A stretch of 64,000 nt of DNA from positions 1,426,001-1,490,000 of the forward strand of contig NZ_CP076128.1 in assembly GCF_018736065.1 (NCBI RefSeq). The letters are read 5' to 3'. The notes beneath the pieces are model-generated. The model did no database searches. It saw only the letters and a program-made list of their open reading frames with translations, and was not told the DNA's origin. The DNA is from Flammeovirga kamogawensis (GTDB lineage: Bacteria > Bacteroidota > Bacteroidia > Cytophagales > Flammeovirgaceae). Numbering within the stretch: the stretch's first letter is position 1; each line of letters begins with the position of its first letter. Positions 23,229 to 46,838 of this stretch are shown in pieces. Position numbers and translations under genes: made by a program.

Positions 23229-24024
23229 AATGAATGTTGAAATTTTAATTAATTTTTATTGTTTGTTTTTGCTATATATAACGTTTTAACAACGTTGTTT
23301 TTTTTATATGATTGAGAAATTTCTGTACTATAAAAAGTATGTATATCATTGGGACACACTGAGGAATTTATACCTGAAATAGTAATAAATTGTTCATAAT
23401 TAGAATTATGAACTAAACTATTGGATTTACCATAAGTCTAATAAACACAGATTGGATTAGTTTTCTTTATAAAATTATTTATATAAGAATTATCTAGGTT
23501 AGCCCTAAAAATTGATGTTCTTATTTTTATCAGTATTAGTTTAGTATTAAAAGTAAAGTACAAAAAGATATGCTCTTGCTGTAGATACTTTTTCTAAGTA
23601 ATAGTTAAGTTTACTTTCATTAATAGTTATTGAAATTTTAGTCTTTTTTTTTGCTTGCATGTACTTTGTAAATCGTCAATTATGTACGACGCTACAATTT
23701 AATTGTTAGAATTTGGTTTCTTACTTTCTATATTTATATCTCAGATATCTTCTACCTGATATAAATAAGCATGTAAGAAATATGAGTTAAAGGTAATAAT
23801 TTTTATTTTAAATATTAAGATTTTTCTAATGATTTTGAACTACTTAAGTAATAAATGAGATTTTTTATTTTTATATAACTGAGATACTAATATTTTTTAC
23901 CTCACCCATAGTATTAACATAATAAAATTTACTTATGCATTCCTAATGTAATAATGAAGAGCCTATTTTGAAGAGACTGATTAGTTATCTTGAAGTCTAA
24001 AAAATCTTACTCCCTACCCACAAA
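23229..24024. other. AT-rich gap with palindromes, no gene recognised
   Basis: About 800 bases between the LRR lipoprotein array and the BspA pair. No credible gene is seen on either strand. It contains GTTCATAATT-AG-AATTATGAAC at 23392-23413 (10-bp perfect arms). It also contains a longer imperfect inverted repeat at 23717-23780, in which TTTCTTAC...TATTTATATC pairs with GATATAAATA...GTAAGAAA. The last 25 bases before 24025 match the spacer that separates the LRR genes. Confidence 0.6.
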
Positions 24025-25182
24025 TTACCTTCTCTCCACTCCTGGTTTTGAACCATATTTATGATAAATCTCAAAGGCATCGTCTATACAAGAGGGCATC
24101 CATTCCCAAGGATTACGTCTTGTTGCAAAATATTTCATCTTTTTAAGATTACAGATGGAAGCAGGAAGAGTTGTTAAGTGGTTATATTCTACATGAAAAC
24201 TAAAAATCTCTGTACAATTACCTATTTCTGATGGAATAGATGTTAGTTTATTGTCATCAAGGTATAAAGTACTAAGTTTTGTAAGATTACCAATCTCACT
24301 GGAAAGAGATATAAGTTTATTACTCTCTAAGTTTAGATATTCTATTTGATTGCATTTCCAAACAAAATCTGGTACAGTTTGCAAATCCATTTCAGATAAT
24401 GTAATATTTATCAAAGAATCAATTAACCAAAGGCTATCTGGAAAGGATTTTAAATTAACACACCCTTTCAAATGTAAATTCCTTAATTTAGATAGTTTTT
24501 TTATTGAGAAGGGAAGTGCGTTGAGGTTAGGATTACCGCTTATTGACAAACCTCTTAATTGATGTAAATTACCAATGTTTTTAGGTAATGTTTTAATTAA
24601 ATTATCTGCTATAGTAAACACTTCTAAAGTTGTTATAGAACAAATTTCAGCAGGAACTTTTTTTATCTTATTCTGAGATAAAGATAACTTCTTAAGCTTA
24701 TCTAGTTTATTGATATCCTTTGGTATAGAAGTAATTTCATTATTATTTAACAATAAATATTCTAGCTTATGAAAATTAAGGAAGAAAGGGGGGATTTCAG
24801 TGAGATTACAGTTATAAACCTCTAAATATTCTAAGTTTTTGATTTCTTTCAATAAAGATATATTATCATTCAATTTTGGAAATTTTGAAAAACTTATGAC
24901 ATCTATAGAATCCATTTTTTTATTTATATCATTGTACCAATCATCTAAATTATCACTATAACCTCTAAAATGTATCCAATACATATCCCTCTCGTCTAAC
25001 CCAAATGTTGAATCTGGATACTTTTTCTTTATAAATTCGAGAAATGGTGTCGTTTTCTCATCTTCAGCTGATATATAACTACAAGATGAAAATATCAATA
25101 AACTAATTAAAACTATTATTCTATTTCCAATAATCTGACGCATAACTTCTAAATCTATGAATGACACCTTCTCTTTTCTCAT
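24025..25182 (-). CDS. LRR lipoprotein, array copy 8 (N-type A, LRR-type x)
   Basis: The 385-residue product has a short leader (MRKEKVSFIDLEV), then an internal Met that opens a lipoprotein signal (MRQIIGNR, hydrophobic core, IFSSC), so Cys34 is the likely lipidated residue. After an acidic linker (SAEDEK), residues about 40-125 form the variable N-domain, type A (KKYPDSTFGLDERDMYW). About ten 23-residue LRRs of the LxxLxLxxNxLxxIP kind follow; the penultimate block is type x (LQTVPDFVWKCNQIEYLNL). The C-terminal cap ends KYGSKPGVERR. The C-terminal half is almost the same as in copy 2, whereas the N-domain is that of copy 1. This is the last gene before the intergenic gap. The function is unknown; a surface or periplasmic binding role is inferred. 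Confidence 0.85.
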   Translation of the reverse strand: MRKEKVSFIDLEVMRQIIGNRIIVLISLLIFSSCSYISAEDEKTTPFLEFIKKKYPDSTFGLDERDMYWIHFRGYSDNLDDWYNDINKKMDSIDVISFSKFPKLNDNISLLKEIKNLEYLEVYNCNLTEIPPFFLNFHKLEYLLLNNNEITSIPKDINKLDKLKKLSLSQNKIKKVPAEICSITTLEVFTIADNLIKTLPKNIGNLHQLRGLSISGNPNLNALPFSIKKLSKLRNLHLKGCVNLKSFPDSLWLIDSLINITLSEMDLQTVPDFVWKCNQIEYLNLESNKLISLSSEIGNLTKLSTLYLDDNKLTSIPSEIGNCTEIFSFHVEYNHLTTLPASICNLKKMKYFATRRNPWEWMPSCIDDAFEIYHKYGSKPGVERR

Positions 25183-25233
25183 TGTTTATTAGTTTTTAGC
25201 TGAGTATAAAAAAACATACTATCTACACACGAA

Positions 25234-26394
25234 TTACCTTCTCTCCACTCCTGGTTTTGAACCATTTTTATGATAAATTTCAAAGGCATCGTCTATACAA
25301 GAGGGCATCCATTCCCAGGGATTACGCCTTGTTGCAAAATATTTCATCTTTTTGAGATTACAGATGGAAGCAGGAAGAGTTGTTAGGTGGTTATATTCTA
25401 CATGAAAACTAAAGATCTCTGTACAATTACCTATTTCCGATGGAAGCGATGTTAGCTTATTGTCGTCCAATTCTAATTTCTCTAAATTAATTAGATTACC
25501 TATACTTGGTGAAATAGATGTGAGTTGATTACTGCTAAGACGTAAAATTTTTATTTGATCGCACTTCCATACAAAATCTGGAACTTTGGTTAATTCCATT
25601 TCAGAGAGTGTTATCTTTATTAAAGAATCAATTAACCAAAGGCTATCAGGAAAGGATTTTAAATTAACACACCCTTTCAAATGTAAATTCCTTAATTTAG
25701 ATAGCTTTTTTATTGAGGAGGGAAGTGCGTTGAGGTTAGGATTACCGCTTATTGATAAACCTCTTAATTGATGTAAATTACCAATGTTTTTTGGTAATGT
25801 TTTAATTAAATTATCTGCTATAGAAAATACTTCTAAAGTAGTTATAGAACAAATTTCAGCAGGAACTTTTTTTATCTTATTCTGATATAAAGATAACTTC
25901 TTAAGCTTATCTAGTTTATTGATATCCTTTGGTATAGAAGTAATTTCATTATTATTTAACAATAAATATTCTAGCTTATCAAAATTAAGGAAGAAAGGGG
26001 GAATTTCATCTAATTTACTTTCAATAATCTGTAATTTGGATAGATTCTTAAATTTTTTCAAGTGAATTAAATCTTGAGAAATATTTTCATAATAAATAAA
26101 AGTAAAACTAGAAATTGAATCTTCTTTATTTCTAAAAATAGAATACCACTCTTCTAAAGAGTCTCCTCTATTACCCCAAAAAGAAACCCAATACATTCCT
26201 TCATCATTTATACCAAAATCTGATTTAGGAAAATTCTTCTTCAATTCTTTCAAAAAAGGTGTTTCTCTATCCTCTTCTGCTGAAAAAATATTACAAGCAG
26301 AGAGTATCAATAAACTAATTAAGAGTATTATTCTATTTCCAATAATCTGACGCATAACTTCTAAGTCTATGAATGACACCTTCTCTTTTCTCAT
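25234..26394 (-). CDS. LRR lipoprotein, array copy 7 (N-type B, LRR-type y)
   Basis: The 386-residue product has a lipobox ILSAC and the linker NIFSAEED. The N-domain is type B (KNFPKSDFGINDEGMYW, then IYYENISQDLIHLKKF), shared with copies 4 and 6. The LRR block is type y (LTKVPDFVWKCDQIKILRL, SISPSIGNLINLEKLEL). The C-terminal cap carries FATRRNPWEWMPSC and ends KNGSKPGVERR. B with y here and B with x in copy 6 means the two halves have been exchanged. The true start may be the internal Met at codon 14, because copy 1 of the array has only that one. Confidence 0.85.
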   Translation of the reverse strand: MRKEKVSFIDLEVMRQIIGNRIILLISLLILSACNIFSAEEDRETPFLKELKKNFPKSDFGINDEGMYWVSFWGNRGDSLEEWYSIFRNKEDSISSFTFIYYENISQDLIHLKKFKNLSKLQIIESKLDEIPPFFLNFDKLEYLLLNNNEITSIPKDINKLDKLKKLSLYQNKIKKVPAEICSITTLEVFSIADNLIKTLPKNIGNLHQLRGLSISGNPNLNALPSSIKKLSKLRNLHLKGCVNLKSFPDSLWLIDSLIKITLSEMELTKVPDFVWKCDQIKILRLSSNQLTSISPSIGNLINLEKLELDDNKLTSLPSEIGNCTEIFSFHVEYNHLTTLPASICNLKKMKYFATRRNPWEWMPSCIDDAFEIYHKNGSKPGVERR

Positions 26395-26445
26395 TGTTTA
26401 TTAGTTTTTAGCTGAGTATAAAAAAACATACTATCTACACACAAA

Positions 26446-27606
26446 TTACCTTCTCTCCACTCCTGGTTTTGAACCATTTTTATGATAAATCTCAAATGCA
26501 TCATCTATACAAGAGGGCATCCATTCCCAGGGATTACGCCTTGTTACAAAATATTTCATCTTTTTGAGATTACAGATGGAAGCAGGAAGAGTTGTTAAGT
26601 GGTTATATTCAACTTGAAAAATAAAGATCTCTGTACAATTACCTATTTCTGATGGAATTGATGTTAGTTTATTGTCATCAAGATATAAAGTTCTAAGTTT
26701 TGTAAGATTACCAATCTCACTGGAAAGAGATATAAGTTTATTACTCTCTAAGTTTAGATATTCTATTTGATTGCATTTCCAAACAAAATCTGGTACAGTT
26801 TGTAAATCCATTTCAGATAACGTAATATTTTTCAAAGAATCAATTAACCAAAGGCTATCTGGAAAAGATTTTAAATTTAAACACCCATTCAAATGTAAAC
26901 TCCTTAATTTAGATAGCTTTTTTATTGAGGAGGGAAGTGCGTTGAGATTAGGATTACCGCTTATTGACAAACCTCTTAATTGATGTAAATTACCAATGTT
27001 TTTGGGTAATGTTTTAATTAAATTACCTGCTATCGTAAACTCTTCTAAAGTTGTTATTGAGCAAATTTCAGTAGGTATTTTTTTTATCTTATTCTGAGAT
27101 AAAGATAACTTCTTAAGCTTATCTAGTTTATTGATATCCTTTGGTATAGAAGTAATTTCATTATTATTTAACAATAAATATTCTAGCTTATCAAAATTAA
27201 GGAAGAAAGGGGGGATTTCATCTAATTTACTTTCAATAATCTGTAATTTGGATAGTTTCTTAAATTTTTTCAAGTGAATTAAATCTTGAGAAATATTTTC
27301 ATAATAAATAAAAGTAAAACTAGAAATTGAATCTTCTTTATTTCTAAAAATAGAATACCACTCTTCTAAAGAGTCTCCTCTATTACCCCAAAAAGAAACC
27401 CAATACATTCCTTCATCATTTATACCAAAATCTGATTTAGGAAAATTCTTCTTCAATTCTTTCAAAAAAGGTGTTTCTCTATCCTCTTCTGCTGAAAAAA
27501 TATTACAAGCAGAGAGTATCAATAAACTAATTAAGAGTATTATTCTATTTCCAATAATCTGACGCATAACTTCTAAATCTATGAATGACACCTTCTCTTT
27601 TCTCAT
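26446..27606 (-). CDS. LRR lipoprotein, array copy 6 (N-type B, LRR-type x)
   Basis: The 386-residue product has the same signal and N-domain (type B) as copy 7, differing by isolated residues (FKKLSKL for FKNLSKL). The penultimate block is type x with private changes (LRTLYLDDN; EIFIFQVEYN). The mid-block reads LKNITLSEMDLQTVP and SLHLNGCLNLKSFP, the most diverged of its region. The cap has FVTRRNP and ends KNGSKPGVERR. LRRs of this class form a curved solenoid that binds protein or glycan ligands on the concave face. No enzymatic domain is present. Confidence 0.85.
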   Translation of the reverse strand: MRKEKVSFIDLEVMRQIIGNRIILLISLLILSACNIFSAEEDRETPFLKELKKNFPKSDFGINDEGMYWVSFWGNRGDSLEEWYSIFRNKEDSISSFTFIYYENISQDLIHLKKFKKLSKLQIIESKLDEIPPFFLNFDKLEYLLLNNNEITSIPKDINKLDKLKKLSLSQNKIKKIPTEICSITTLEEFTIAGNLIKTLPKNIGNLHQLRGLSISGNPNLNALPSSIKKLSKLRSLHLNGCLNLKSFPDSLWLIDSLKNITLSEMDLQTVPDFVWKCNQIEYLNLESNKLISLSSEIGNLTKLRTLYLDDNKLTSIPSEIGNCTEIFIFQVEYNHLTTLPASICNLKKMKYFVTRRNPWEWMPSCIDDAFEIYHKNGSKPGVERR

Positions 27607-27657
27607 TGTTTATTAGTTTTTAGCTGAACATAAAAAAACATACTATCTACACACAAA

Positions 27658-28812
27658 TTACCTTCTCTCCACTCCTGGTTTTGAACCATTTTTATGATAA
27701 ATCTCAAAGGCATCATCTATACAAGAGGGCATCCATTCCCAGGGATTACGCCTTGTTACAAAATATTTCATCTTTTTGAGATTACAGATGGAAGCAGGAA
27801 GAGTTGTTAAGTGGTTATATTCAACTGAAAAGTCATATATATTTGTGCAATTACCTATTTCTGTCGGAAGAGATGTTAGTTCATTATCATCTAAAGATAA
27901 CGCTTCGAGGTTAATTAGATTACCTATACCTGGTGAAATAGATGTGAGTTGATTACTACTAAGACGTAAAATTTTTATTTGATCGCACTTCCATACAAAA
28001 TCTGGAACTTTGGTTAATTCCATTTCAGAGAGTGTAATATTTATTAAAGAATTGAGTAACCAAAGGCTATCAGGAAAAGATTTTAAATTAACACACCCAT
28101 TCAAATTTAAATGCCTTAATTTAGATAGCTTTTTTATTGAGGAAGGAAGTGCGTTGAGGTTAGGATTACCACTTATTGACAAACCTCTTAATTGATGTAA
28201 ATTACCAATGTTTTTTGGTAATGTTTTAATTAAATTATCTGATATAGTAAACTCTTCTAAAGTTGTTATAGAGCAAATTTCAGCAGGAATTTTTTTTATC
28301 TTATTCTGATGTAAATATAATTTCTTAAGCTTATCTAGTTTATTGATATCCTTTGGTATAGAAGTAATTTTGTTATCCTCTAGTAATAAATATTCTAATT
28401 TCTCGAAAGTGAGAAAGAAAGGGGGGATTTTGGTGAGATTGCAATTATGAATTCCTAAATAATTTAAATTTTCAAAACTACTTAGACTATCTATCATTAT
28501 GTCTAAATCTGAAAATTCTTCGAAGACAAGGTAATCTATTGAGTCTCTTTTATGCTTAATATCTGAATACCAATTTATAATGGAATCATTATAGCCTCTA
28601 AATTGAATCCAATAATACCCTTTATCTAGACCATAACTAGAATCCGGATATTTACTTGATAATTCTTTCAAAAAAGGTGTTTCTCTACCCTCTTCTGCTG
28701 AAAAAATATTACAAGCAGAGAGTATCAATAAACTAATTAAGAGTATTATTCTATTTCCAATAATCTTACGCATAACTTCTAAATCTATGAATGACACCTT
28801 CTCTTTTCTCAT
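27658..28812 (-). CDS. LRR lipoprotein, array copy 5 (unique N-type C, variant y block)
   Basis: The 384-residue product has lipobox ILSAC; the second Met reads MRKIIGNR. The N-domain is unique to this copy, type C (SSKYPDSSYGLDKGYYW, FEEFSDLDIMIDSLSSF), two residues shorter than type B. The LRR block is a y variant (SPGIGNLINLEALSLDDNELTSLPTEIGNCTNIYDFSVEYN), also unique. This makes copy 5 the most divergent of the array, a possible donor of new sequence or a relic of an older copy. Cap and last residues are as in the others. Confidence 0.85.
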   Translation of the reverse strand: MRKEKVSFIDLEVMRKIIGNRIILLISLLILSACNIFSAEEGRETPFLKELSSKYPDSSYGLDKGYYWIQFRGYNDSIINWYSDIKHKRDSIDYLVFEEFSDLDIMIDSLSSFENLNYLGIHNCNLTKIPPFFLTFEKLEYLLLEDNKITSIPKDINKLDKLKKLYLHQNKIKKIPAEICSITTLEEFTISDNLIKTLPKNIGNLHQLRGLSISGNPNLNALPSSIKKLSKLRHLNLNGCVNLKSFPDSLWLLNSLINITLSEMELTKVPDFVWKCDQIKILRLSSNQLTSISPGIGNLINLEALSLDDNELTSLPTEIGNCTNIYDFSVEYNHLTTLPASICNLKKMKYFVTRRNPWEWMPSCIDDAFEIYHKNGSKPGVERR

Positions 28813-28863
28813 TGTTTATTAGTTTTTAGCTGAACATAAAAAATCTTACTCCCTACCCACAAA

Positions 28864-30024
28864 TTACCTTCTCTCCACTCCTGGTTTTGAACCATTTTTA
28901 TGATAAATTTCAAAGGCATCGTCTATACAAGAGGGCATCCATTCCCAGGGATTACGCCTTGTTACAAAATATTTCATCTTTTTGAGATTACAGATGGAAG
29001 CAGGAAGAGTTGTTAAGTGGTTATATTCTACATGAAAACTAAAAATCTCTGTACAATTACCTATTTCCGATGGAAGCGATGTTAGCTTATTGTCGTCCAA
29101 TTCTAATTTCTCTAAATTAATTAGATTACCTATACTTGGTGAAATAGATGTGAGTTGATTACTACTAAGACGTAAAATTTTTATTTGATCGCACTTCCAT
29201 ACAAAATCTGGAACTTTGGTTAATTCCATTTCAGAGAGTGTTATCTTTATTAAAGAATCAATTAACCAAAGGCTATCAGGAAAAGATTTTAAATTAACAC
29301 ACCCTTTCAAATGTAAATTCCTTAATTTAGATAGCTTTTTTATTGAGGAGGGAAGTGCTTTAAGATTAGTATTACGGGTTATTGATAAACCTCTTAATTG
29401 ATGTAAATTACCAATGTTTTTGGGTAATGTTTTAATTAAATTACCTGCTATCGTAAACTCTTCTAAAGTTGTTATTGAGCAAATTTCAGTAGGTATTTTT
29501 TTTATCTTATTCTGAGATAAAGATAACTTCTTAAGCTTATCTAGTTTATTGATATCCTTTGGTATAGAAGTAATTTCATTATTATTTAACAATAAATATT
29601 CTAGCTTATCAAAATTAAGGAAGAAAGGGGGGATTTCATCTAATTTACTTTCAATAATCTGTAATTTGGATAGTTTCTTAAATTTTTTCAAGTGAATTAA
29701 ATCTTGAGAAATATTTTCATAATAAATAAAAGTAAAACTAGAAATTGAATCTTCTTTATTTCTAAAAATAGAATACCACTCTTCTAAAGAGTCTCCTCTA
29801 TTACCCCAAAAAGAAACCCAATACATTCCTTCATCATTTATACCAAAATCTGATTTAGGAAAATTCTTCTTCAATTCTTTCAAAAAAGGTGTTTCTCTAC
29901 CCTCTTCTGCTGAAAAAATATTACAAGCAGAGAGTATCAATAAACTAATTAAGAGTATTATTCTATTTCCAATAATCTGACGCATAACTTCTAAATCTAT
30001 GAATGACACCTTCTCTTTTCTCAT
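28864..30024 (-). CDS. LRR lipoprotein, array copy 4 (N-type B, mid-type TR, LRR-type y)
   Basis: The 386-residue product has lipobox ILSAC with linker SAEEGRE as in copy 5, then the type B N-domain of copies 6 and 7. The middle repeat reads SITRNTNLKALPSS, a variant otherwise found only in copy 1, where other copies have SISGNPNLNALPSS. It ends with block y (LTKVPDFVWKC...LEKLELDDN). It therefore combines a copy-5-like linker, a copy-6-like N-domain and a copy-1-like C-half, a mosaic best explained by gene conversion. Confidence 0.85.
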   Translation of the reverse strand: MRKEKVSFIDLEVMRQIIGNRIILLISLLILSACNIFSAEEGRETPFLKELKKNFPKSDFGINDEGMYWVSFWGNRGDSLEEWYSIFRNKEDSISSFTFIYYENISQDLIHLKKFKKLSKLQIIESKLDEIPPFFLNFDKLEYLLLNNNEITSIPKDINKLDKLKKLSLSQNKIKKIPTEICSITTLEEFTIAGNLIKTLPKNIGNLHQLRGLSITRNTNLKALPSSIKKLSKLRNLHLKGCVNLKSFPDSLWLIDSLIKITLSEMELTKVPDFVWKCDQIKILRLSSNQLTSISPSIGNLINLEKLELDDNKLTSLPSEIGNCTEIFSFHVEYNHLTTLPASICNLKKMKYFVTRRNPWEWMPSCIDDAFEIYHKNGSKPGVERR

Positions 30025-30075
30025 TGTTTATTAGTTTTTAGTTGAGTATAAAAAATCTTACTACCTACCCACGAA

Positions 30076-31233
30076 TTACCTTCTCTCCACTCCTGGTTTT
30101 GAACCATTTTTATGATAAATCTCAAAGGCATCGTCTATACAAGAGGGCATCCATTCCCAGGGATTACGCCTTGTTACAAAATATTTCATCTTTTTAAGAT
30201 TACAGATGGAAGCAGGAAGAGTTGTTAAGTGGTTATATTCTACATGAAAACTAAAGATCTCTGTACAATTACCTATTTCCGATGGAAGCGATGTTAGCTT
30301 ATTGTCGTCCAATTCTAATTTCTCTAAATTAATTAAATTACCTATACTTGGTGAAATAGATGTGAGTTGATTACTGCTAAGACGTAAAATTTTTATTTGA
30401 TCACATTTCCATACAAAATCTGGAACTTTGGTTAATTCCATTTCAGAGAGTGTTATCTTTATTAAAGAATTGAGTAACCAAAGACTATCAGGAAAAGATT
30501 TTAAATTTACACACCCTTTCAAACGTAAATTCCTTAATTTAGATAGCTTTTTTATTGAGGAGGGAAGTGCGTTGAGGTTAGGATTACCGCTTATTGACAA
30601 ACCTCTTAATTGATGTAAATTACCAATGTTTTTTGGTAATGTTTTAATTAAATTATCTGATATAGTAAACTCTTCTAAAGTTGTTATAGAACAAATTTCA
30701 GCAGGAACTTTTTTTATCTTATTCTGATGTAAATATAATTTCTTAAGCTTATCTAGTTTATTGATATCCTTTGGTATAGAAGTAATTTTGTTATTATATA
30801 GTAGTAAAAATTCTAATTTTTTAAAATTGAGTATTGGAGAAGGGATTTCTATCAAATCACAATCAACAATACTTAATGTTTCTAAACTATCAAATTGACA
30901 TATCAAATTAATAGATTTTATTATATCTGGATATTTTCTAAACTTAATGTAATCAATTGAATCTCTTTTACTTTTTAAATCTTTAAACCAATTGTCTAAT
31001 TGATCTTTATGACCTAAAAATGCAAACCAATACATACCGTCTTCATCTATCCCAGCATATGAATTTGGATATTTAGCTTTTATTTCTTCTAAGAATGGAG
31101 TCGTTCTCTCATCTTCAGCTGATATATAACTACAAGATGAAAATATCAATACACTAATTAAAACTATTATTCTATTTCCAATAATCTGACGCATAACTTC
31201 TAAATCTATGAATGACACCTTCTCTTTTCTCAT
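30076..31233 (-). CDS. LRR lipoprotein, array copy 3 (N-type D, LRR-type y)
   Basis: The 385-residue product has lipobox IFSSC with linker YISAEDER, the signal type of copies 1 and 8. The N-domain is type D (IKAKYPNSYAGIDEDGMYW, RKYPDIIKSINLICQF, VDCDLIEIPSPILNFKKLEFLLL), shared only with copy 2. The LRR block is type y. The leader and 51-base gap match the other copies. Because copy 2 has the same N-domain but the other signal type and block x, signal, N-domain and LRR block all reassort independently. Confidence 0.85.
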   Translation of the reverse strand: MRKEKVSFIDLEVMRQIIGNRIIVLISVLIFSSCSYISAEDERTTPFLEEIKAKYPNSYAGIDEDGMYWFAFLGHKDQLDNWFKDLKSKRDSIDYIKFRKYPDIIKSINLICQFDSLETLSIVDCDLIEIPSPILNFKKLEFLLLYNNKITSIPKDINKLDKLKKLYLHQNKIKKVPAEICSITTLEEFTISDNLIKTLPKNIGNLHQLRGLSISGNPNLNALPSSIKKLSKLRNLRLKGCVNLKSFPDSLWLLNSLIKITLSEMELTKVPDFVWKCDQIKILRLSSNQLTSISPSIGNLINLEKLELDDNKLTSLPSEIGNCTEIFSFHVEYNHLTTLPASICNLKKMKYFVTRRNPWEWMPSCIDDAFEIYHKNGSKPGVERR

Positions 31234-31284
31234 TGTTTATTAGTTTTTAGCTGAGTATAAAAAAACATACTATCTACACACGAA

Positions 31285-32442
31285 TTACCTTCTCTCCACT
31301 CCTGGTTTTGAACCATATTTATGATAAATCTCAAAGGCATCGTCTATACAAGAGGGCATCCATTCCCAGGGATTACGCCTTGTTGCAAAATATTTCATCT
31401 TTTTGAGATTACAGATAGAAGCAGGAAGAGTTGTTAAGTGGTTATATTCTACATGAAAACTAAAAATCTCTGTACAATTACCTATTTCTGATGGAATTGA
31501 TGTTAGTTTATTGTCATCAAGGTATAAAGTACTAAGTTTTGTAAGATTACCAATCTCACTGGAAAGAGATATAAGTTTATTACTCTCTAAGTTTAGATAT
31601 TCTATTTGATTGCATTTCCAAACAAAATCTGGTACAGTTTGCAAATCCATTTCAGATAACGTAATATTTATCAAAGAATCAATTAACCAAAGGCTATCTG
31701 GAAAGGATTTTAAATTAACACACCCTTTCAAATGTAAATTCCTTAATCTAGATAGTTTTTTTATTGAGGAGGGAAGTGCGTTGAGGTTAGGATTACCGCT
31801 TATTGACAAACCTCTTAATTGATGTAAATTACCAATGTTTTTAGGTAATGTTTTAATTAAATTATCTGCTATAGTAAACACTTCTAAAGTTGTTATAGAA
31901 CAAATTTCAGCAGGAACTTTTTTTATCTTATTCTGAGATAAAGATAACTTCTTAAGCTTATCTAGTTTATTGATATCCTTTGGTATAGAAGTAATTTTGT
32001 TATTATATAGCAGTAAAAATTCTAATTTTTTAAAGTTGAGTATTGGAGAAGGGATTTCTATCAAATCACAATCAACAATACTTAATGTTTCTAAACTATC
32101 AAATTGACATATCAAATTAATAGACTTTATTATATCTGGATATTTTCTAAACTTAATGTAATCAATTGAATCTCTTTTACTTTTTAAATCTTTAAACCAA
32201 TTGTCTAAATGGTCTTTATGACCTAAAAATGCGAACCAATACATATCGTCTTCATCTATTCCAGCATATGAATTTGGATATTTAGCTTTTATTTCTTCTA
32301 AGAATGGAGTCGTTTTCTCCTCTTCTGCTGAAAAAATATTACAAGTAGAGAGTATCAATAAACTAATTAAGAGTATTATTCTATTTCCAATAATCTGACG
32401 CATAACTTCTAAATCTATGAATGACACCTTCTCTTTTCTCAT
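31285..32442 (-). CDS. LRR lipoprotein, array copy 2 (N-type D, LRR-type x)
   Basis: The 385-residue product has lipobox ILSTC with linker NIFSAEEEK, then the type D N-domain with small differences from copy 3 (DDMYW; KDHLDNW). The C-half is block x (LQTVPDFVWKCNQIEYLNL, LSTLYLDDNKLTSIP) with FATRRNP and the ending KYGSKPGVERR, features otherwise found together only in copy 8. A recent exchange of the whole C-half between copies 2 and 8, the two near-ends of the array, is likely. Confidence 0.85.
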   Translation of the reverse strand: MRKEKVSFIDLEVMRQIIGNRIILLISLLILSTCNIFSAEEEKTTPFLEEIKAKYPNSYAGIDEDDMYWFAFLGHKDHLDNWFKDLKSKRDSIDYIKFRKYPDIIKSINLICQFDSLETLSIVDCDLIEIPSPILNFKKLEFLLLYNNKITSIPKDINKLDKLKKLSLSQNKIKKVPAEICSITTLEVFTIADNLIKTLPKNIGNLHQLRGLSISGNPNLNALPSSIKKLSRLRNLHLKGCVNLKSFPDSLWLIDSLINITLSEMDLQTVPDFVWKCNQIEYLNLESNKLISLSSEIGNLTKLSTLYLDDNKLTSIPSEIGNCTEIFSFHVEYNHLTTLPASICNLKKMKYFATRRNPWEWMPSCIDDAFEIYHKYGSKPGVERR

Positions 32443-32493
32443 TGTTTATTAGTTTTTAGTTGAGTATAAAAAATCTTACTATCTACCCACGAA

Positions 32494-33612
32494 TTACCTT
32501 CTCTCCACTCCTGGTTTTGAACCATTTTTATGATAAATCTCAAAGGCATCATCTATACAAGAGGGCATCCATTCCCAAGGATTACGCCTTGTTACAAAAT
32601 ATTTCATCTTTTTGAGATTACAGATGGAAGCAGGAAGAGTTGTTAAGTGGTTATATTCTACATGAAAACTAAAAATCTCTGTACAATTACCTATTTCCGA
32701 TGGAAGCGATGTTAGCTTATTGTCGTCCAATTCTAATTTCTCTAAATTAATTAAATTACCTATACTTGGTGAAATAGATGTGAGTTGATTACTGCTAAGA
32801 CGTAAAATTTTTATTTGATCACATTTCCATACAAAATCTGGAACTTTGGTTAATTCCATTTCAGAGAGTGTTATCTTTATTAAAGAATCAATTAACCAAA
32901 GGCTATCAGGAAAAGATTTTAAATTAACACACCCTTTCAAATGTAAATTCCTTAATTTAGATAGCTTTTTTATTGAGGAGGGAAGTGCTTTAAGGTTAGT
33001 ATTACGGGTTATTGATAAACCTCTTAATTGATGTAAATTACCAATGTTTTTGGGTAATGTTTTAATTAAATTACCTGCTATCGTAAACTCTTCTAAAGTT
33101 GTTATAGAACAAATTTCAGCAGGAACTTTTTTTATCTTATTCTGAGATAAAGATAACTTTTTAAGCTTATCTAGTTTATTAATATCCTTTGGTATAGAAG
33201 TAATTTCATTATTATTTAACAATAAATATTCTAGCTTATGAAAATTAAGGAAGAAAGGGGGGATTTCAGTGAGATTACAGTTATAAACCTCTAAATATTC
33301 TAAGTTTTTGATTTCTTTCAATAAAGATATATTATCATTCAATTTTGGAAATTTTGAAAAACTTATGACATCTATAGAATCCATTTTTTTATTTATATCA
33401 TTGTACCAATCATCTAAATTATCACTATAACCTCTAAAATGTATCCAATACATATCCCTCTCGTCTAACCCAAATGTTGAATCTGGATACTTTTTCTTTA
33501 TAAATTCGAGAAATGGTGTCGTTTTCTCATCTTCAGCTGATATATAACTACAAGATGAAAATATCAATAAACTAATTAAGAGTATTATTCTATTTCCAAT
33601 AATCTGATGCAT
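32494..33612 (-). CDS. LRR lipoprotein, array copy 1, overlapping the 755-residue gene
   Basis: The 372-residue product starts MHQIIGNR directly, without the 13-residue leader of the other copies, so the lipobox cysteine (IFSSC) is at residue 21. This supports the internal Met as the functional start throughout the array. Its first 23 bases lie inside the 3' end of the 755-residue gene in another frame, suggesting coupled translation. N-domain type A (as copy 8), middle variant SITRNTNLKALPSS (as copy 4), block y. This is probably the founder position of the array, next to the CIS operon. Confidence 0.87.
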   Translation of the reverse strand: MHQIIGNRIILLISLLIFSSCSYISAEDEKTTPFLEFIKKKYPDSTFGLDERDMYWIHFRGYSDNLDDWYNDINKKMDSIDVISFSKFPKLNDNISLLKEIKNLEYLEVYNCNLTEIPPFFLNFHKLEYLLLNNNEITSIPKDINKLDKLKKLSLSQNKIKKVPAEICSITTLEEFTIAGNLIKTLPKNIGNLHQLRGLSITRNTNLKALPSSIKKLSKLRNLHLKGCVNLKSFPDSLWLIDSLIKITLSEMELTKVPDFVWKCDQIKILRLSSNQLTSISPSIGNLINLEKLELDDNKLTSLPSEIGNCTEIFSFHVEYNHLTTLPASICNLKKMKYFVTRRNPWEWMPSCIDDAFEIYHKNGSKPGVERR

Positions 33613-35857
33613 AACTTCTGTTTTCTAAATAATTTTTAAATAGTACTAATTCTTCAAATTCAGAGCCTGTAATTATTAAGATATTCTGGCTATTAATATT
33701 CTTAAACCTACTCTTACCTAGTCTGCTAAAAACTTGCTCTTTTGTTTTACCAAAATGCCTATGGATGTCAAATCCCATAATTTTATCGGGAACATCTTCA
33801 TCATCATTTAACTTCACCCATTCTTTATTAAACTGTTCTTGGAACTTATTTTTTATTCCTTTAATGGCAGATGAATGTTTATTTTTAAAAAGTTCCCAGT
33901 CAGTACAACTGTACGTAGAATCTTCGTTCTTTTGTAATGCTTCTAATCTTTCTAGAATCAATGCATCATGTTCTTTGTAAGAATCTTTATCATTTAAACG
34001 TTCCAATTTCGTCTGCTTCAAATAAGTAGTTAAACTTTTTTGGAATGAAGTATCTCTTGCTTCCCACATCATCTGATTGTATACAGTACTGATATAACTA
34101 AGGGTATCTTCCATTACAATTTCTGCAAAAGCTACCTTATTTGTGGCAGTAATGCTTACACTCATCTTTTTACCTTTACTTGTGGCACTACTATTTTTCT
34201 GAGTGGACATTGACGCCTCATTGTTAAACCAAAATCTTAAATACTGAATATGATAGTTTTCACCCTCTTGATATGCATTTACTTCTACAGTAATACTTTG
34301 TTTATAATCTAAAATTCTTTCTATTCCACCTTCACTCGCATTCTTTTTATGATATACTGTAGCAACTATTGTTCTACCTAATTCATTTTCAAGAGCCGAA
34401 AGGCTAGAAAGGCCACCTTTAATTGAGCTAAATGCTTTGACTATACTTTCCTTATGGGATGTAAAATTATCTACTAAACTACTTCCTGATATTTTACCAT
34501 CAGTAGATTTTATTTCTGTAATAGGTAACTGAATTTGAAAGTTTAAATAGTCACCATTATTATCTTTATTTGCATCATTCATCACTTTTGTCAACTCCAA
34601 AGTTGCACTAACACTTAAATCGTTAGATAAAGGAACGTCTAAACTAACTGATGTTGCTTGCTCAAAAATAGTATCTGTATGATGATCGTTGCTTGCTTTT
34701 ATAAATTCTAAGTCAGGACTATAAGTTTCTAAACTTTGCTCTGTACCAACTTTATTAATTCCATTTCTCTTAACACGAGATATTGTTGTTTTTTTATACT
34801 CTCCATGTACACCCAATTTTTCATCTAAACCTACTTCTGCATTGGCATTTAAAGCATGATAAACTTTCGATACAGAAGTATATCCTTTACTTAAAGCTTT
34901 CTTATTTGTTTTCCAATAGCTAGATTTATCATCAAGTCCATATTCTTTAGGATCCAAATCCGATTTATCCAAAACTACTCTAAACGTATTATGAAAATGA
35001 GCAAGAAAATGATCTATTGATTCATAACTTCCATTAAGTTGATCAAATGTATTTAAAGACCCCCCTCCTTTTATACCTATATCTGCATTTAAAATACCTA
35101 CATCTATACCACCAGACCCTCCTAGTTTCCAATTCACTGATGTCGTAAAACGTCTATCATCTGTAACACTCCCAGAAAGTCCCATTCCACCGTTAAGTGA
35201 AACTGTGAAGATTAAACTAACTCTTGAAGTTAAATTAATTGCAAAATCAATTTTTGATTCTGATAGTGATAAATTATTTTTTTCTCCTGGAAAAAGAGAA
35301 TGCATTTTATTGGCTAGTAAAAGAGGTGAATACCTTTCTACCCCTGTGGCAGGTGATAACTCGGTAGCATTAACTCTTTTCTTTGTTATTTTCTTTTCAA
35401 GTGGTGTTACATTTTTACACTCTTCATAAGCAAAACCAAAAGCAGTTGCTTCGCTTCCATAATAAAAGTGTGCAAATATAGTCGCCGTAGAATCGATAGG
35501 AGTATAAGAAGCTATCTCCTTGTGAAGTAACGATGCGTTCCCCAAAGAAATTAGGTCTCTGTTAGTTACTGTTGTGTCTGCAAAAAAGGAGTTATTCACA
35601 AATAGAAGATATTCAATATTCAAATTAAATTTCTTCGCAATATCTGTAATTTTTTCACCTTCGTCTTTAGCATAAAACACAGTATTCCCATTATAATAAC
35701 AAAACCCCTTATGGTAATAATTATCATACACAGGACCATCACTTTTTAAGGCTTGGTCTATATCTAAACCCTCTAGTCCCGTATTAATAGATGCAAAATC
35801 TATATGAAAATCTTCTTCTTCTTCAAAATCTAAGAAGTTAGTTTTATTTTTACTCAT
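33590..35857 (-). CDS. LysM-like 755-residue protein at the end of the CIS operon, candidate cargo
   Basis: No family recognised over the full length. The N-terminus is short and very acidic (FLDFEEEEDFHIDF), without a signal peptide. Residues about 59-107 fit a LysM fold (VFYAKDEGEKITDIAKKFNLNIEYLL, then ISLG). Residues about 205-280 are glycine-rich beta strands (LNGGMGLSGSV, WKLGGSGGIDVGI, DIGIKGGGSL). About 450-600 is another beta-rich part and the C-terminal 150 residues are charged helices. It follows the AAA+ ATPase by 31 bases and overlaps LRR copy 1. Its position after the conserved ATPase, lack of export signal and mixed domain build are what CIS cargo proteins often show, but a structural role is equally possible. 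Confidence 0.6.
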   Translation of the reverse strand: MSKNKTNFLDFEEEEDFHIDFASINTGLEGLDIDQALKSDGPVYDNYYHKGFCYYNGNTVFYAKDEGEKITDIAKKFNLNIEYLLFVNNSFFADTTVTNRDLISLGNASLLHKEIASYTPIDSTATIFAHFYYGSEATAFGFAYEECKNVTPLEKKITKKRVNATELSPATGVERYSPLLLANKMHSLFPGEKNNLSLSESKIDFAINLTSRVSLIFTVSLNGGMGLSGSVTDDRRFTTSVNWKLGGSGGIDVGILNADIGIKGGGSLNTFDQLNGSYESIDHFLAHFHNTFRVVLDKSDLDPKEYGLDDKSSYWKTNKKALSKGYTSVSKVYHALNANAEVGLDEKLGVHGEYKKTTISRVKRNGINKVGTEQSLETYSPDLEFIKASNDHHTDTIFEQATSVSLDVPLSNDLSVSATLELTKVMNDANKDNNGDYLNFQIQLPITEIKSTDGKISGSSLVDNFTSHKESIVKAFSSIKGGLSSLSALENELGRTIVATVYHKKNASEGGIERILDYKQSITVEVNAYQEGENYHIQYLRFWFNNEASMSTQKNSSATSKGKKMSVSITATNKVAFAEIVMEDTLSYISTVYNQMMWEARDTSFQKSLTTYLKQTKLERLNDKDSYKEHDALILERLEALQKNEDSTYSCTDWELFKNKHSSAIKGIKNKFQEQFNKEWVKLNDDEDVPDKIMGFDIHRHFGKTKEQVFSRLGKSRFKNINSQNILIITGSEFEELVLFKNYLENRSYASDYWK

Positions 35858-35888: not shown

Positions 35889-37313
35889 TTACATTCTACG
35901 GCCAGTATGCACTGCTGTTCTACCTAACCTTTGTTCTATTAATGCTGCTCCTGGAGCTGTATCTGGACAAACCCTATAAGTAGAATCTCTCTTGTAAAAT
36001 TCTTTCTTTAAGTAAGGCTCTACTATTTCAAATGTTATCTCTTTGTGATTATCATGAATTAATTTAATCAGTACCTCAGAGATTATTGAGCTGATATTAG
36101 CACCAGATAACTGATAATTTTGTGATAATTCTTCTAATAAACCCTCTTTATATATATAACCTTTTGGTAATGCAGTTGCCCATAATAAATATCTTTCTTT
36201 TGCTAATGGGAAAGGGAACTCTATAATATGATTAATTCTACGGAGCATTGCTTTATCAACATGAGTTCTTATATCTGTTACGTTACTTGCTAAAATTACT
36301 ATCCCATCAAAGGTTTCTAAGCGTTGTAATAAATAAGACATTTCTTGATTACTATATTTATCCTTGGCTTCATTCACATTTTCATTTCTTTTCGTAAAAA
36401 TTGAATCCGCTTCATCGATAAATAATATACAATTATGCCCTTCCAAACGGGTAAAAATTCGCTCCATGGCTTTTTCAAAATCACCAACATATCTTGAAAC
36501 TACCCTAGAAATATCTAATGTATAAGTTGGTACATTATAGTCTTGTCCTAATGTTGTTGCTGTAAGAGATTTACCTGTACCCGGTGAACCAGTAAATACA
36601 AATAACTGATTAGATTTAATATAACTGTATAGCTCTTTTTTTTCTTTTAGTAATGGACGAACCTTAAGTAGTAATTCTAAAGATTCTAATTCCTTTTTTG
36701 TTTCATTAGGTAAAATAACCTTCTCAAAAGACATTTTACTAGTTGTCAATCTTGCCGGAAAATCAATTTCATGATCCAAACGTGGTGATTCACCTCCTAT
36801 TAAATATTCAATATAATTATTAGCTACTTTTAGTTTTTGATCTAATAAATTATCGTTGTTTTTTGAATAATGACTTAACTCAATTATACCATCTTTAATT
36901 AATGGAAACGTAGGAGATGCTACTTTTAATAAAAAGGCGTTTCTATCTTTTTTAGGTATACATATCATCAAAAAAGTCTTCAATGTAGGTATAAAAATTT
37001 CCCTCTCCTTTTCTAAAAAACCTCCAAAATTTGTTCTAAAATTCACTTTTTTAAATCCCTCTACAAAAGGAAGAAAAAGTTCTGGTAAGAATTCCCAAGA
37101 ATAGGCAAAAATAATTAATAACTCTTCTTCTAAAGTCAATCGGTATTTTTGTGAAAGTTGCCCTAAATTACTATTTAGATCTATTGGACTGATTGAGATC
37201 TTAGTATCATCATTTTTAAAATGTTTTTCAATAATCTGTTTCAAGATTAAAACTCTAGAAGATAGTATTTGCTCATTACTATTGATATCTTTTCTAGTTT
37301 CAAGTGTCTCCAT
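35889..37313 (-). CDS. CIS-associated AAA+ ATPase (Afp15/Pvc15-like)
   Basis: The 474-residue protein has an N-terminal helical domain (about 1-190) and an AAA+ module. Walker A GSPGTGKS lies at 242-249, Walker B ILFIDEAD at 296-303, sensor 1 VILASN near 335, and an arginine-finger region MLRRINHIIEFP near 350. AAA+ proteins of this type are a hallmark of eCIS loci. In PVC and Afp the equivalent is needed for cargo loading or assembly, though its exact step is unsettled. It lies between the 12-TM/HEAT protein and the candidate cargo gene, as in many eCIS loci where cargo follows the ATPase. Confidence 0.87.
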   Translation of the reverse strand: METLETRKDINSNEQILSSRVLILKQIIEKHFKNDDTKISISPIDLNSNLGQLSQKYRLTLEEELLIIFAYSWEFLPELFLPFVEGFKKVNFRTNFGGFLEKEREIFIPTLKTFLMICIPKKDRNAFLLKVASPTFPLIKDGIIELSHYSKNNDNLLDQKLKVANNYIEYLIGGESPRLDHEIDFPARLTTSKMSFEKVILPNETKKELESLELLLKVRPLLKEKKELYSYIKSNQLFVFTGSPGTGKSLTATTLGQDYNVPTYTLDISRVVSRYVGDFEKAMERIFTRLEGHNCILFIDEADSIFTKRNENVNEAKDKYSNQEMSYLLQRLETFDGIVILASNVTDIRTHVDKAMLRRINHIIEFPFPLAKERYLLWATALPKGYIYKEGLLEELSQNYQLSGANISSIISEVLIKLIHDNHKEITFEIVEPYLKKEFYKRDSTYRVCPDTAPGAALIEQRLGRTAVHTGRRM

Positions 37314-40582: not shown

Positions 40583-41134
40583 TTATAATTGATTAAGCTT
40601 TTTTAAACCAATATCTTTGGCTGAACTTATTGATATTTGTTTTATGTACTCTACTGTATAAGTAACACTTTCCATTAAGATCTCTCCTTTTTCTGCATTA
40701 AAATCACCGAACTCTACAGCTTTTGGAAAACAGTTTACTAATACAATCGAAAATAAAGGAACTCCAGATTGGTTTAATGCTACTATCAACAAATTAAACT
40801 TTCTAATCACATAATTGCCTGTACCAGAGTTAACCATGCTCTCAAGGATTTCTCCTCCAACATTATTATGAGGACTTGAAAACACACCTTTTTTAAAGGT
40901 TACATCATCAAATTCAACACCTTTAGCTAGCAACATTTGCCTGTCATTACTACCTAAAATATTCACTCTTTCAGTTACTCTTTTAGCTGTTATTTTAGAA
41001 ATACTTTGAAATGATGCAATGGGTGTTTGTCCAAACATCTTTAGACCTTCTTGCATATCAACTTTTTCATTAAAGTCATCAAGTACAATTACATTAAATC
41101 TATAACCCGTTAATATTTCATCAAAATCAATCAT
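40583..41134 (-). CDS. Second tail-tube-like protein (gp19/Afp5-type)
   Basis: The 183-residue protein has the T4 gp19/Hcp-like tube pattern: an N-terminal strand FNVIVLDDF, then VEFDDVTFKKGV, a middle loop, FNLLIVALNQSGVPLFSIVLVNCFPKAVEFGDFNAEKGEILMESVTYTVEYI. Two tube paralogues are usual in eCIS: one main tube and one initiator contacting the baseplate. Its place next to gp25 favours the initiator role. It ends 6 bases before the 12-TM gene and starts 2 bases after the gp25 stop codon. Confidence 0.78.
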   Translation of the reverse strand: MIDFDEILTGYRFNVIVLDDFNEKVDMQEGLKMFGQTPIASFQSISKITAKRVTERVNILGSNDRQMLLAKGVEFDDVTFKKGVFSSPHNNVGGEILESMVNSGTGNYVIRKFNLLIVALNQSGVPLFSIVLVNCFPKAVEFGDFNAEKGEILMESVTYTVEYIKQISISSAKDIGLKKLNQL

Positions 41135-41136
41135 CT

Positions 41137-41520
41137 TTATTCAAGTTCACTTTTATAAGAAAATTCACCAATTTCGTTTGTTTCTTTAATCATATAAGCA
41201 ATAAATACAGCCATTGCTTTTCCTTCTTGCTCTTGCTCTTCAATAACATTAATGTTCAGAACATTTACTCTTGGCTCAAATTTCTGTATTGCTTTTTGTA
41301 CGACAGTTTCCACCTCATAAATAAGTTGGCTGTCTATTCTTCTAAAGATAAATTGTCTAAGATTACACCCAAAATCTTTATTGATAGGACGTTCACCTGG
41401 GTGTGTAGAAAAAAGAATATATAAACTTTCTCTTATATCTATATGGTCTGATACCATCTCGATATCTGTTCCATCATTTCTAAAACTAGGCGGAAATTTC
41501 CATCCCGTATTATTGTCCAT
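41137..41520 (-). CDS. Baseplate wedge protein gp25 (GPW/Afp9-like)
   Basis: A 127-residue gp25 homologue, a small baseplate wedge component that nucleates the sheath. The signature lies at residues 28-60: DIRESLYILFSTHPGERPINKDFGCNLRQFIF, with the conserved GERP at 42-45, and later FEPRVNVLNINV. Length is normal. It starts 60 bases after the fibre-like gene. Confidence 0.92.
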   Translation of the reverse strand: MDNNTGWKFPPSFRNDGTDIEMVSDHIDIRESLYILFSTHPGERPINKDFGCNLRQFIFRRIDSQLIYEVETVVQKAIQKFEPRVNVLNINVIEEQEQEGKAMAVFIAYMIKETNEIGEFSYKSELE

Positions 41521-41580
41521 TTTAGTTTGCGTTTAGCAGTTTATATCTAAATAAATTCTCTTCTATAGGCCTGGAAAAGG

Positions 41581-43421: not shown

Positions 43422-43427
43422 TGTTGT

Positions 43428-44012: not shown

Positions 44013-44045
44013 TTCAGTTTTCAGTATTTTCTTAAAAAGAGTTAG

Positions 44046-44555: not shown

Positions 44556-44561
44556 CTTAAT

Positions 44562-44837: not shown

Positions 44838-44847
44838 TTTTTAGTTT

Positions 44848-46620: not shown

Positions 46621-46629
46621 GTTTACTAC

Positions 46630-46833: not shown

Positions 46834-46838
46834 AACTA

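What the first reader, a model, noticed from the sequence alone, without database searches (positions are those of the whole stretch)
24000..33617. Eight LRR lipoprotein genes are recombinational mosaics
Four N-domain types (A: copies 1, 8; B: 4, 6, 7; C: 5; D: 2, 3) combine with two penultimate LRR blocks (x: 2, 6, 8; y: 1, 3, 4, 5, 7), two signal types (IFSSC: 1, 3, 8; ILSxC: others) and two mid-repeat types (SITRNTNLKA: 1, 4; SISGNPNLNA: rest). A, B and D each occur with both x and y. All pairings together cannot come from simple duplication and divergence; exchange between copies is required. The system looks like a cassette for generating variant ligand-binding proteins.
Basis: seen in the sequence. 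Interest (0 to 1): 0.85.

Follow-up and report, generated by a model that had tools for sequence, protein, structure and literature searches.

The report
Mosaic immunity genes behind injected toxin
Eight neighbouring genes in a marine Flammeovirga bacterium have clearly swapped pieces with one another, and they most likely make a set of shield proteins against variants of a toxin that the bacterium fires from a phage-tail-like injection machine.

Summary
Eight intact LRR lipoprotein genes (24025-33612, minus strand) are mosaics in exactly the combinations listed. Four-gamete, PHI-type and GENECONV-type tests all demand exchange.

The interpretation needs changing. The array ends an extracellular contractile injection system (eCIS) operon in Flammeovirga. 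It follows, and overlaps by 23 nt, a 755-aa putative cargo toxin. In five Flammeovirga genomes I found 13 toxin->LRR loci. Four continue with an orphan toxin C-terminus plus a second LRR gene, the layout of CDI/Rhs orphan modules. There the module's flanks are nearly identical, while the end of the toxin and the LRR body have diverged.

The leader of each inner window copy is a relic of the toxin gene's start (upstream region plus 12 codons), joined directly to the immunity gene. Variable residues concentrate on the LRR concave face.

Best reading: a toxin-stripped, recombining immunity array against variants of an eCIS toxin. Recombining tandem immunity genes (EsaG, TipC), predicted LRR immunity proteins and eCIS immunity genes are known. 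I did not find the combination in my paper searches. Toxicity and immunity are inferred, not shown.

The parts
33590..35857 (-). 755-aa putative eCIS cargo toxin; N-terminal ~50 aa shared with a second cargo in the same genome; variable C-terminal region
   Evidence: No Pfam (E<=1), NCBIfam, PHROGs or PADLOC family. Relatives with LRR gene downstream. N-terminal 48 aa 65% identical to the G000:C2 toxin.
32494..33612 (-). LRR lipoprotein copy c1 (IFSSC / N-type A / SITRNTNLKA / y); start overlaps toxin stop by 23 nt; presumed cognate immunity gene
31285..32442 (-). LRR lipoprotein copy c2 (ILSTC / D / SISGNPNLNA / x)
30076..31233 (-). LRR lipoprotein copy c3 (IFSSC / D / SISGNPNLNA / y)
28864..30024 (-). 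LRR lipoprotein copy c4 (ILSAC / B / SITRNTNLKA / y)
27658..28812 (-). LRR lipoprotein copy c5 (ILSAC / C / SISGNPNLNA / diverged y)
26446..27606 (-). LRR lipoprotein copy c6 (ILSAC / B / SISGNPNLNA / x)
25234..26394 (-). LRR lipoprotein copy c7 (ILSAC / B / SISGNPNLNA / y)
24025..25182 (-). LRR lipoprotein copy c8 (IFSSC / A / SISGNPNLNA / x), last of the array
33247..33528 (-). N-domain (codons 29-122) of c1, the most diverged block: N-terminal alpha/beta cap plus first repeats; four types 37-52% identical between types
32683..32922 (-). x/y block (codons 231-310) of c1
32404..32493 (-). Spacer plus leader between c1 and c2: ~31 nt resembling the flank after c8, then a relic of the toxin gene's start (upstream region + 12 codons MRKEKVSFIDLE), then 7 nt of toxin-only 3' sequence before the immunity ATG
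31195..31284 (-). Same spacer/toxin-start relic before c3
29986..30075 (-). Same spacer/toxin-start relic before c4
28774..28863 (-). Same spacer/toxin-start relic before c5
27568..27657 (-). Same spacer/toxin-start relic before c6
26356..26445 (-). Same spacer/toxin-start relic before c7
25144..25233 (-). Same spacer/toxin-start relic before c8
35889..37313 (-). AAA ATPase directly upstream of the toxin (Pvc15-like position; that name is recalled, not from a call)
   Evidence: Pfam AAA 7.6e-23
40583..63696 (-). eCIS structural genes: gp19-type tubes (40583, 63235), gp25 (41137), CIS_tube (44046), spike with OB domain (44848), GH18 (46839), Baseplate_J (48705), CIS tape measure (52270), with unassigned genes between; sheath and Pvc16_N lie just beyond the window

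Best explanation
The array is a homogeneous polyimmunity locus: eight LRR lipoprotein immunity genes behind an eCIS-delivered polymorphic toxin.
Mechanism: (1) the 755-aa cargo carries an N-terminal loading signal and a variable C-terminal end. (2) c1, translated from an ATG inside the toxin's 3' end, makes an exported LRR lipoprotein whose N-cap and concave face bind and block that end. (3) Tandem duplication of toxin+immunity, followed by deletion of almost the whole second toxin gene, left an immunity-only unit headed by the toxin's translation start and first 12 codons. (4) Unequal crossing-over amplified this unit to seven copies. (5) Recombination and gene conversion through the near-identical spacer, early-LRR and C-terminal blocks shuffled old, strongly diverged N-domains and concave-face blocks. 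The cell thus carries shields against several toxin variants made by kin.
Shown: the mosaic, the eCIS context, the toxin-LRR pairing at 13 loci, the toxin-start relics, the concave-face variation. Inferred: toxicity, binding, protection, the order of steps 3-5, and that different N-types answer different toxin variants.
For: Mosaic. eCIS context; an AAA ATPase also lies just upstream of the cargo or cargo run in L039, L040, L053 and L080, and in two pieces in L041. Pairing: of 14 distinct toxin genes hit in Flammeovirga have an LRR gene directly downstream; one shares only the N-terminal signal and has a 144-aa membrane protein instead (L040), one runs off its contig (L081). A 13th pair (L053) came from the LRR search. 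In all 13 the LRR start overlaps the toxin or lies within 30 nt of its stop. Orphan toxin C-terminus + second LRR gene: 4 loci, L039, L042, L053, L057. Module exchange: last 75 LRR codons 0.96 aa identity with pS 0.09-0.26, against pS 0.59-0.76 in the LRR middle; toxin end 0.39-0.63 aa identity in the three loci measured. Relics: the leaders match the toxin start at 43-45 of 61 ATG-anchored positions, against at most 30 of 61 for 19 other gene starts; alignment score 51 against at most 37 in 5000 shuffles and at most 32 in 500 when searched against all toxin-only sequence. A spacer of the three-gene array L079 also holds an internal toxin piece (score 48, 0 of 500 shuffles). Concave face: 27/50 against 26/175, p = 6.7e-8, best of 23 registers, next best p = 0.0068; pooled over seven other paralogue sets 61/155 against 438/1771, p = 9e-5. 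Constraint: pN/pS 0.17-0.32 in the LRR blocks.
Against: No toxin domain is recognised and no toxicity is shown; the toxin structure job failed and could not be rerun. Of the seven other paralogue sets the concave-face enrichment is significant alone in only one (L053, p = 0.013 uncorrected), and register +5 also scores in the pool. 26 of the 28 LRR genes at the 13 loci end their signal in a cysteine, but only 11 fit a strict lipobox, and the two of L053 have none, so not all need be lipoproteins. In L042 the LRR N region is less diverged (0.80) than the middle (0.70). The toxin 3' part of the window relic is only 7 nt beyond the immunity gene itself; the other L079 spacer is weak (85 of 500 shuffles as good over the whole toxin), L080 not significant at 5% only marginally (41 of 1000) and L078 has none. 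The rejection of a single origin of the window N-domains is borderline (AU p = 0.034), and co-variation of toxin ends with N-domains is not testable with five pairs. c1 alone could suffice for self-protection.
Confidence: 0.8

Rival explanations
1. The LRR lipoproteins are surface adhesins or environmental receptors whose repertoire is diversified by recombination, only incidentally placed behind an eCIS.
For: LRR proteins with an export signal and variable concave faces; acidic stretch after the cysteine; BspA-type LRR secreted proteins lie next door.
Against: The placement is not incidental: 13 toxin->LRR loci with overlapping or adjacent starts, orphan toxin C-termini between LRR genes at four, and toxin-start relics in the window's leaders.
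Confidence: 0.1
2. The LRR lipoproteins are accessory parts of the injection system (anchor, release or cargo-handling factors), multiplied for dosage.
For: They are the last genes of the eCIS operon and start inside the cargo gene.
Against: The export signal (by eye) sends them out of the cytoplasm, where cargo is loaded. Dosage does not explain four old N-types, and an accessory would not be paired with orphan toxin ends. In the 13-17 kb read around L042, L043, L056 and L057 I saw no structural eCIS gene by eye.
Confidence: 0.06
3. Neutral tandem amplification with gene conversion; only c1 matters and the other copies are by-products.
For: Spacers (92-99% to the first one) and C-terminal blocks (mean 96%) are alike, as recent amplification would give.
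Against: All eight frames are intact; amino-acid change is held down in the LRR blocks (pN/pS 0.17-0.32) and directed to the concave face; N-domains are far older than the spacers around them (pS 0.53-0.75 between types).
Confidence: 0.12

Closest known systems
EsaG and TipC immunity gene strings of type VII secretion (PMC9484751: abstract and discussion read)
   Same: Tandem, non-identical immunity genes for a polymorphic toxin; recombination between paralogues through conserved blocks; variation on a concave binding face (TipC).
   Different: Gram-positive, other folds, type VII secretion; here LRR lipoproteins, an eCIS cargo toxin, and a toxin-start relic in every spacer.
Orphan cdiA-CT/cdiI and rhs-CT/rhsI modules (PMC4927057: passages read)
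   Same: Displaced toxin C-terminus plus immunity gene downstream of the intact toxin; homology to the upstream gene allows recombination.
   Different: In the window only the toxin's start and immunity genes remain; four other Flammeovirga loci show the intact orphan stage.
Imm-LRR and homogeneous polyimmunity loci (PMC3482391: passages read)
   Same: LRR proteins predicted as immunity proteins; tandem paralogous immunity genes as a concept.
   Different: The passages seen list Imm-LRR next to T5SS toxins and in heterogeneous polyimmunity loci; LRR is not among the families they name for prominent homogeneous loci, and 'contractile' does not occur in the text held.
eCIS toxin-immunity pairs (PMC8213781: passages read)
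   Same: Immunity genes next to eCIS toxins, evidence that some eCIS act on bacteria.
   Different: There a RES-like toxin with an unrelated antitoxin; the authors note that most antibacterial eCIS toxins lack a recognisable immunity gene; 'LRR' and 'lipoprotein' do not occur in the main text.
rAID orphan immunity arrays of gut Bacteroidales (PMC12247911: abstract and outline read)
   Same: Arrays of orphan immunity genes in Bacteroidota that change at the effector interface.
   Different: SUKH-domain immunity to T6SS effectors, in recombinase-associated clusters.

Membership tests
Extracellular contractile injection system (eCIS) | Sheath, gp19-type tube, baseplate, tape measure, Pvc16-type protein and AAA ATPase in one run of genes | tested here: met
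   Pfam hits in the window and the stretch beyond it
Extracellular contractile injection system (eCIS) | Free particles that are released and inject cargo | not testable with these tools
   needs microscopy
Polymorphic toxin-immunity system | Conserved N-terminal/trunk region with variable C-terminal region | tested here: met
   Shared N-terminal signal on different cargos; toxin end diverged while the part before it is nearly identical
Polymorphic toxin-immunity system | Candidate immunity gene immediately downstream of the toxin | tested here: met
   12 of 14 toxin genes, plus L053
Polymorphic toxin-immunity system | Orphan toxin C-terminus/immunity cassettes | tested here: met
   L039, L042, L053, L057
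Polymorphic toxin-immunity system | C-terminal region toxic, neutralised by the immunity protein | not testable with these tools
   no recognised toxin domain; bench test needed
Imm-LRR | LRR protein used as immunity protein beside a toxin | tested here: inconclusive
   LRR families strong and model pLDDT 87; position fits; function not shown
Lipoprotein | Signal sequence ending in a lipobox cysteine | tested here: inconclusive
   window: 8 of 8 with cysteine at 21, 7 of 8 strict lipobox; all 13 loci: 26 of 28 with cysteine, 11 of 28 strict (pattern only, no predictor)
Homogeneous polyimmunity locus | Tandem paralogous immunity genes of one family | tested here: met
   eight in the window, three in L079, two in L078 and L080, given that they are immunity genes
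Recombining tandem immunity genes (EsaG/TipC type) | Recombination between paralogues through conserved blocks | tested here: met
Recombining tandem immunity genes (EsaG/TipC type) | Copy-number change between strains of one species | not testable with these tools
   one genome per species held

The most novel reading that the evidence does not exclude
Flammeovirga carries a class of eCIS-delivered polymorphic toxins neutralised by exported LRR proteins. It builds multi-specificity immunity repertoires by a stepwise route visible in present genomes: duplicate toxin+immunity, erode the second toxin until little more than its translation start is left, amplify the immunity-only unit, then reshuffle N-caps and concave-face blocks between copies. 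This works much like a recombining receptor repertoire against an incoming weapon.
Probability: 0.5. Interest if true: 0.75.

Novelty: new variant of a known kind. Interest (0 to 1): 0.62.

Why it matters
PMC8213781 calls it a mystery that most antibacterial eCIS toxins lack immunity genes; here is a family of eCIS cargos with an obvious candidate immunity gene in 13 loci, of a fold not linked to eCIS in the papers I saw. Loci with an intact orphan toxin end (four), with toxin pieces in a spacer (L079) and with only the toxin's start left in every spacer (the window) suggest how a bacterium turns toxin-immunity pairs into an immunity-only array. It makes testable which toxin variants each N-type answers, and whether a bacterial LRR repertoire evolves like other recombining recognition repertoires.

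Tried and rejected
Rejected: simple duplication and divergence; adhesin/antigenic variation as first choice (pairing with toxins); neutral amplification as full explanation.

Led nowhere or weak: toxin families in Pfam, NCBIfam, PHROGs and PADLOC gave none; the solved-structure search gave only a chance-level hit (E 0.52). The wider search found the A1 toxin family in 1 of 395 class genomes (the window's own) and in 5 of 194 order genomes (four Flammeovirga and one weak hit in G550, E 3.8e-4 with a stop inside, not followed). Flammeovirga-genus genomes G002, G003, G004 and G006 had no toxin hit. From (21 of 58 genomes with LRR matches) I read only some loci: six stretches in other families (L065-L070) hold tandem or single LRR genes without a toxin-like partner that I could see, and in F. 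aprica L054 (LRR, no toxin seen) and L055. So the pairing was not extended beyond the genus. Of the window genome's other LRR genes, those in L048-L052 have no toxin-like neighbour by eye. Promoter/terminator scan: no excess, no terminator; Rfam: none. N-domain trees across species: suggestive only; one tree puts the two G008 N-domains together without support (69/76), an earlier one does not. Co-variation of toxin end and N-domain: five pairs, not informative.

For this I lowered the novel case from 0.55 to 0.50.

Not examined: strain-level variation, viral contigs, metagenomes, the first 12 kb of the window.
Full report
OBSERVATION. Eight LRR lipoprotein genes lie head to tail at 24025-33612 on the minus strand. 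Informative sites: 281, of which 211 have two states; 11,380 of their 22,155 pairs fail the four-gamete test. The PHI-type statistic is below all 2000 permutations over the whole gene and in three sub-regions. One tree cannot hold c4 and c6 identical over 213 consecutive polymorphic sites, c1 and c8 over 207, and at the same time c2, c6 and c8 against the rest at 42 sites of the x/y block. Exchange between copies is therefore required. The Hudson-Kaplan number (40) should not be read as 40 events, because the N-domain is saturated.

AGE OF THE PIECES. Between types the N-domains are 37-52% identical in protein with pS 0.53-0.75; within types pS is 0-0.08. The early LRR block (mean nt identity 0.93), the C-terminal block (0.96) and the 90-nt spacer+leader (the six others 92-99% to the first) are far younger or homogenised. 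Old N-domains thus sit in a young, uniform scaffold. pN/pS is 0.67 in the N-domain, 0.62 in the signal, 0.29 and 0.32 in the early LRR and x/y blocks, 0.17 at the C-terminus. The predicted structure (mean pLDDT 87, pTM 0.83) is an N-terminal alpha/beta cap followed by an LRR solenoid. Among residues 125-349, the xxLxLxx positions vary between copies in 27 of 50 cases and all others in 26 of 175 (p = 6.7e-8); of the other 22 registers the best reach p = 0.0068. A first version with four positions per repeat gave 23/40 against 30/185. In seven other paralogue sets the pooled effect is weaker (61/155 against 438/1771, p = 9e-5); only L053 is significant alone, and register +5 also scores.

CONTEXT. 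The right half of the window is a minus-strand run of genes for an extracellular contractile injection system: tubes, gp25, spike, Baseplate_J, tape measure, AAA ATPase, with sheath and Pvc16_N just outside. A GH18 protein and an nSTAND1-WD40 protein are in the same run. The gene between the AAA ATPase and the array (33590-35857, 755 aa) has no family. Its first 48 residues are 65% identical to those of another large protein on contig C2 of the same genome, and in Flammeovirga sp. SJP92 two otherwise different proteins share one N-terminus (L040). That fits an eCIS loading signal (N-terminal signals of eCIS cargos: PMC11297309, passages read). The genus name rests on two relatives of the same genus group whose contigs are Flammeovirga records.

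PAIRING. Searches of 58 relatives and 194 order genomes gave 14 distinct toxin genes in this genus. Twelve are followed directly by an LRR gene. One, sharing only the N-terminal signal, is followed by a 144-aa membrane protein. One runs off its contig. A thirteenth toxin-LRR pair (L053, F. aprica) came from the LRR search. The LRR start overlaps the toxin or lies within 30 nt of its stop in all 13. The LRR genes come singly, in twos, in twos with an orphan toxin C-terminus between them (L039, L042, L053, L057), in a three (L079) and in the window's eight; at L041 and L058 the contig ends inside the first LRR gene. Pfam finds an AAA ATPase just upstream of the cargo or cargo run also in L039, L040, L053 and L080, and in two ORFs in L041. 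Of the 28 LRR genes at these loci 26 have a cysteine at the end of the signal sequence, 11 fit a strict lipobox (7 of 8 in the window), and the two of L053 have no such cysteine. F. aprica also has a lone LRR lipoprotein (L055) related to the C2 immunity genes of the window genome, without a toxin or a clear relic beside it.

MODULE EXCHANGE ELSEWHERE. In the loci with an orphan C-terminus, the start of the orphan is nearly identical to the intact toxin at DNA level (L039 100%, L042 100% over 60 nt, L053 91-100%, L057 mostly 86-100%). Then the last toxin residues before the conserved tail diverge (0.39-0.63 aa identity, three loci measured) together with the LRR body, and the last 75 LRR codons are again 0.96 identical with low pS (0.09-0.26). 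Identical flanks around a diverged block that joins the toxin's end to the immunity protein's recognition part are what recombination between toxin-immunity modules leaves. All eight sets with two or more LRR genes have a homogenised C-terminus (0.88-1.00 aa identity in the last three 25-column blocks of the seven other sets); L042 is the set whose N region is not more diverged than its middle.

TOXIN RELICS. The inner window copies carry a 13-codon N-terminal extension (MRKEKVSFIDLEV) that c1 lacks. A DNA search with the c1/c2 spacer found, besides the seven spacers and the flank after c8, the start of the toxin gene itself (72% over 81 nt, E 2.9e-4). ATG-anchored, each leader matches the toxin start at 43-45 of 61 positions, while 19 other gene starts of the window reach at most 30; the local alignment score of 51 exceeds all 5000 shuffles (maximum 37). 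Against the whole toxin-only sequence it is again the best match, 0 of 500 shuffles as good. The extension reads like the toxin N-terminus (MSKNKTNFLDFEE; C2: MSKSKTNYIDLEE). It joins, at a short AGAAG match, the toxin/immunity overlap; only 7 nt there lie outside the immunity gene, so the 3' side of the relic is little more than the immunity gene's own start. Each inner unit is therefore an immunity gene headed by the translation start of a toxin gene that has lost everything in between. One deletion followed by amplification explains why all seven are alike. Elsewhere, one spacer of L079 holds a piece from 192-158 nt before the immunity start (score 48, 0 of 500 shuffles); its other spacer is weak, L080 marginal (41 of 1000), L078 none. 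Matches in L079 to the region upstream of the toxin involve a palindromic repeat and are not counted.

EXPLANATION. The simplest account is immunity: an exported LRR protein whose gene starts inside a cargo gene, diversified at its binding face together with the end of that cargo, and accumulated in tandem after the toxin parts were lost. Toxicity, binding and protection are inferred. Co-variation of toxin end and N-domain across species could not be tested with five pairs. N-domains of other species are 27-51% identical to those of the window copies, about as far as the window types are from each other, while the C-terminal half (codons 206-372) of the eight window copies forms one clade (100/100). 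A test against one origin of the window's N-domains gives p = 0.034, suggestive only.

WHAT IS KNOWN. Recombination between tandem immunity genes is established for EsaG and TipC (PMC9484751, abstract and discussion read). LRR immunity proteins and homogeneous polyimmunity loci were proposed in PMC3482391 (passages read), orphan modules are described in PMC4927057 (passages read), eCIS immunity genes in PMC8213781 (passages read), orphan immunity arrays of Bacteroidales in PMC12247911 (abstract and outline read). AlgoCIS cargo proteins are described in PMC8894135, where the word immunity does not occur in the main text (passages read). In six paper searches no listed title or abstract start joins LRR proteins, immunity and eCIS, or Flammeovirga and eCIS; the lists were cut at 10-20 papers and cover open PMC papers only. 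I rate it a new variant of a known kind.

Noticed in passing
window 18786-20852 and 21105-23228 (-): Two paralogous BspA-type LRR_5 / Flg_new secreted proteins with near-identical N- and C-termini and different internal repeats, directly downstream of the array.
   Followed up: no
window 57263-60289 (-): nSTAND1 NTPase with a WD40 propeller inside the eCIS gene run (Pfam 8.5e-77); function in an injection system unclear.
   Followed up: no
window 46839-48698 (-): Glycosyl hydrolase family 18 protein within the eCIS gene run, possibly a cell-wall or chitin-directed part.
   Followed up: no
window 37397-40576 (-): 1059-aa membrane-protein-like ORF with weak HEAT hits in the eCIS gene run; no family above cut-off.
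   Followed up: no
L040 2966-3889 and 3873-4307: A 307-aa cargo with the same N-terminus as the SJP92 toxin, overlapping a 144-aa membrane protein: perhaps another cargo-immunity pair with a membrane immunity protein.
   Followed up: partly
L053 760-1734 / 1731-2126 and 2538-2852: Small genes with near-identical N-termini (REKEQRLEQKKK), one overlapping a 131-aa protein: a further cargo family in F. aprica.
   Followed up: no
L055 5294-6673 (-): Solitary LRR lipoprotein in F. aprica related to the C2 immunity genes of the window genome, no toxin upstream: looks like a lone orphan immunity gene.
   Followed up: partly
L039 9444-13985 (-): Inverted second set: AAA ATPase, short toxin-like C-terminus (169 aa), LRR lipoprotein, then another similar AAA ATPase.
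   Followed up: partly
L079 spacers (about 3574-3680 and 4890-5066): Palindromic repeats (ACTTCAGTCGTG) in the LRR spacers and upstream of the toxin; possibly a mobile or REP-like element.
   Followed up: no
L065 6161-10610, L066 5263-7957, L067 11336-15500: Tandem arrays of three to five LRR genes without evident export signal in another family of the same order, with a shared N-terminus and no toxin-like neighbour seen in the stretch.
   Followed up: partly
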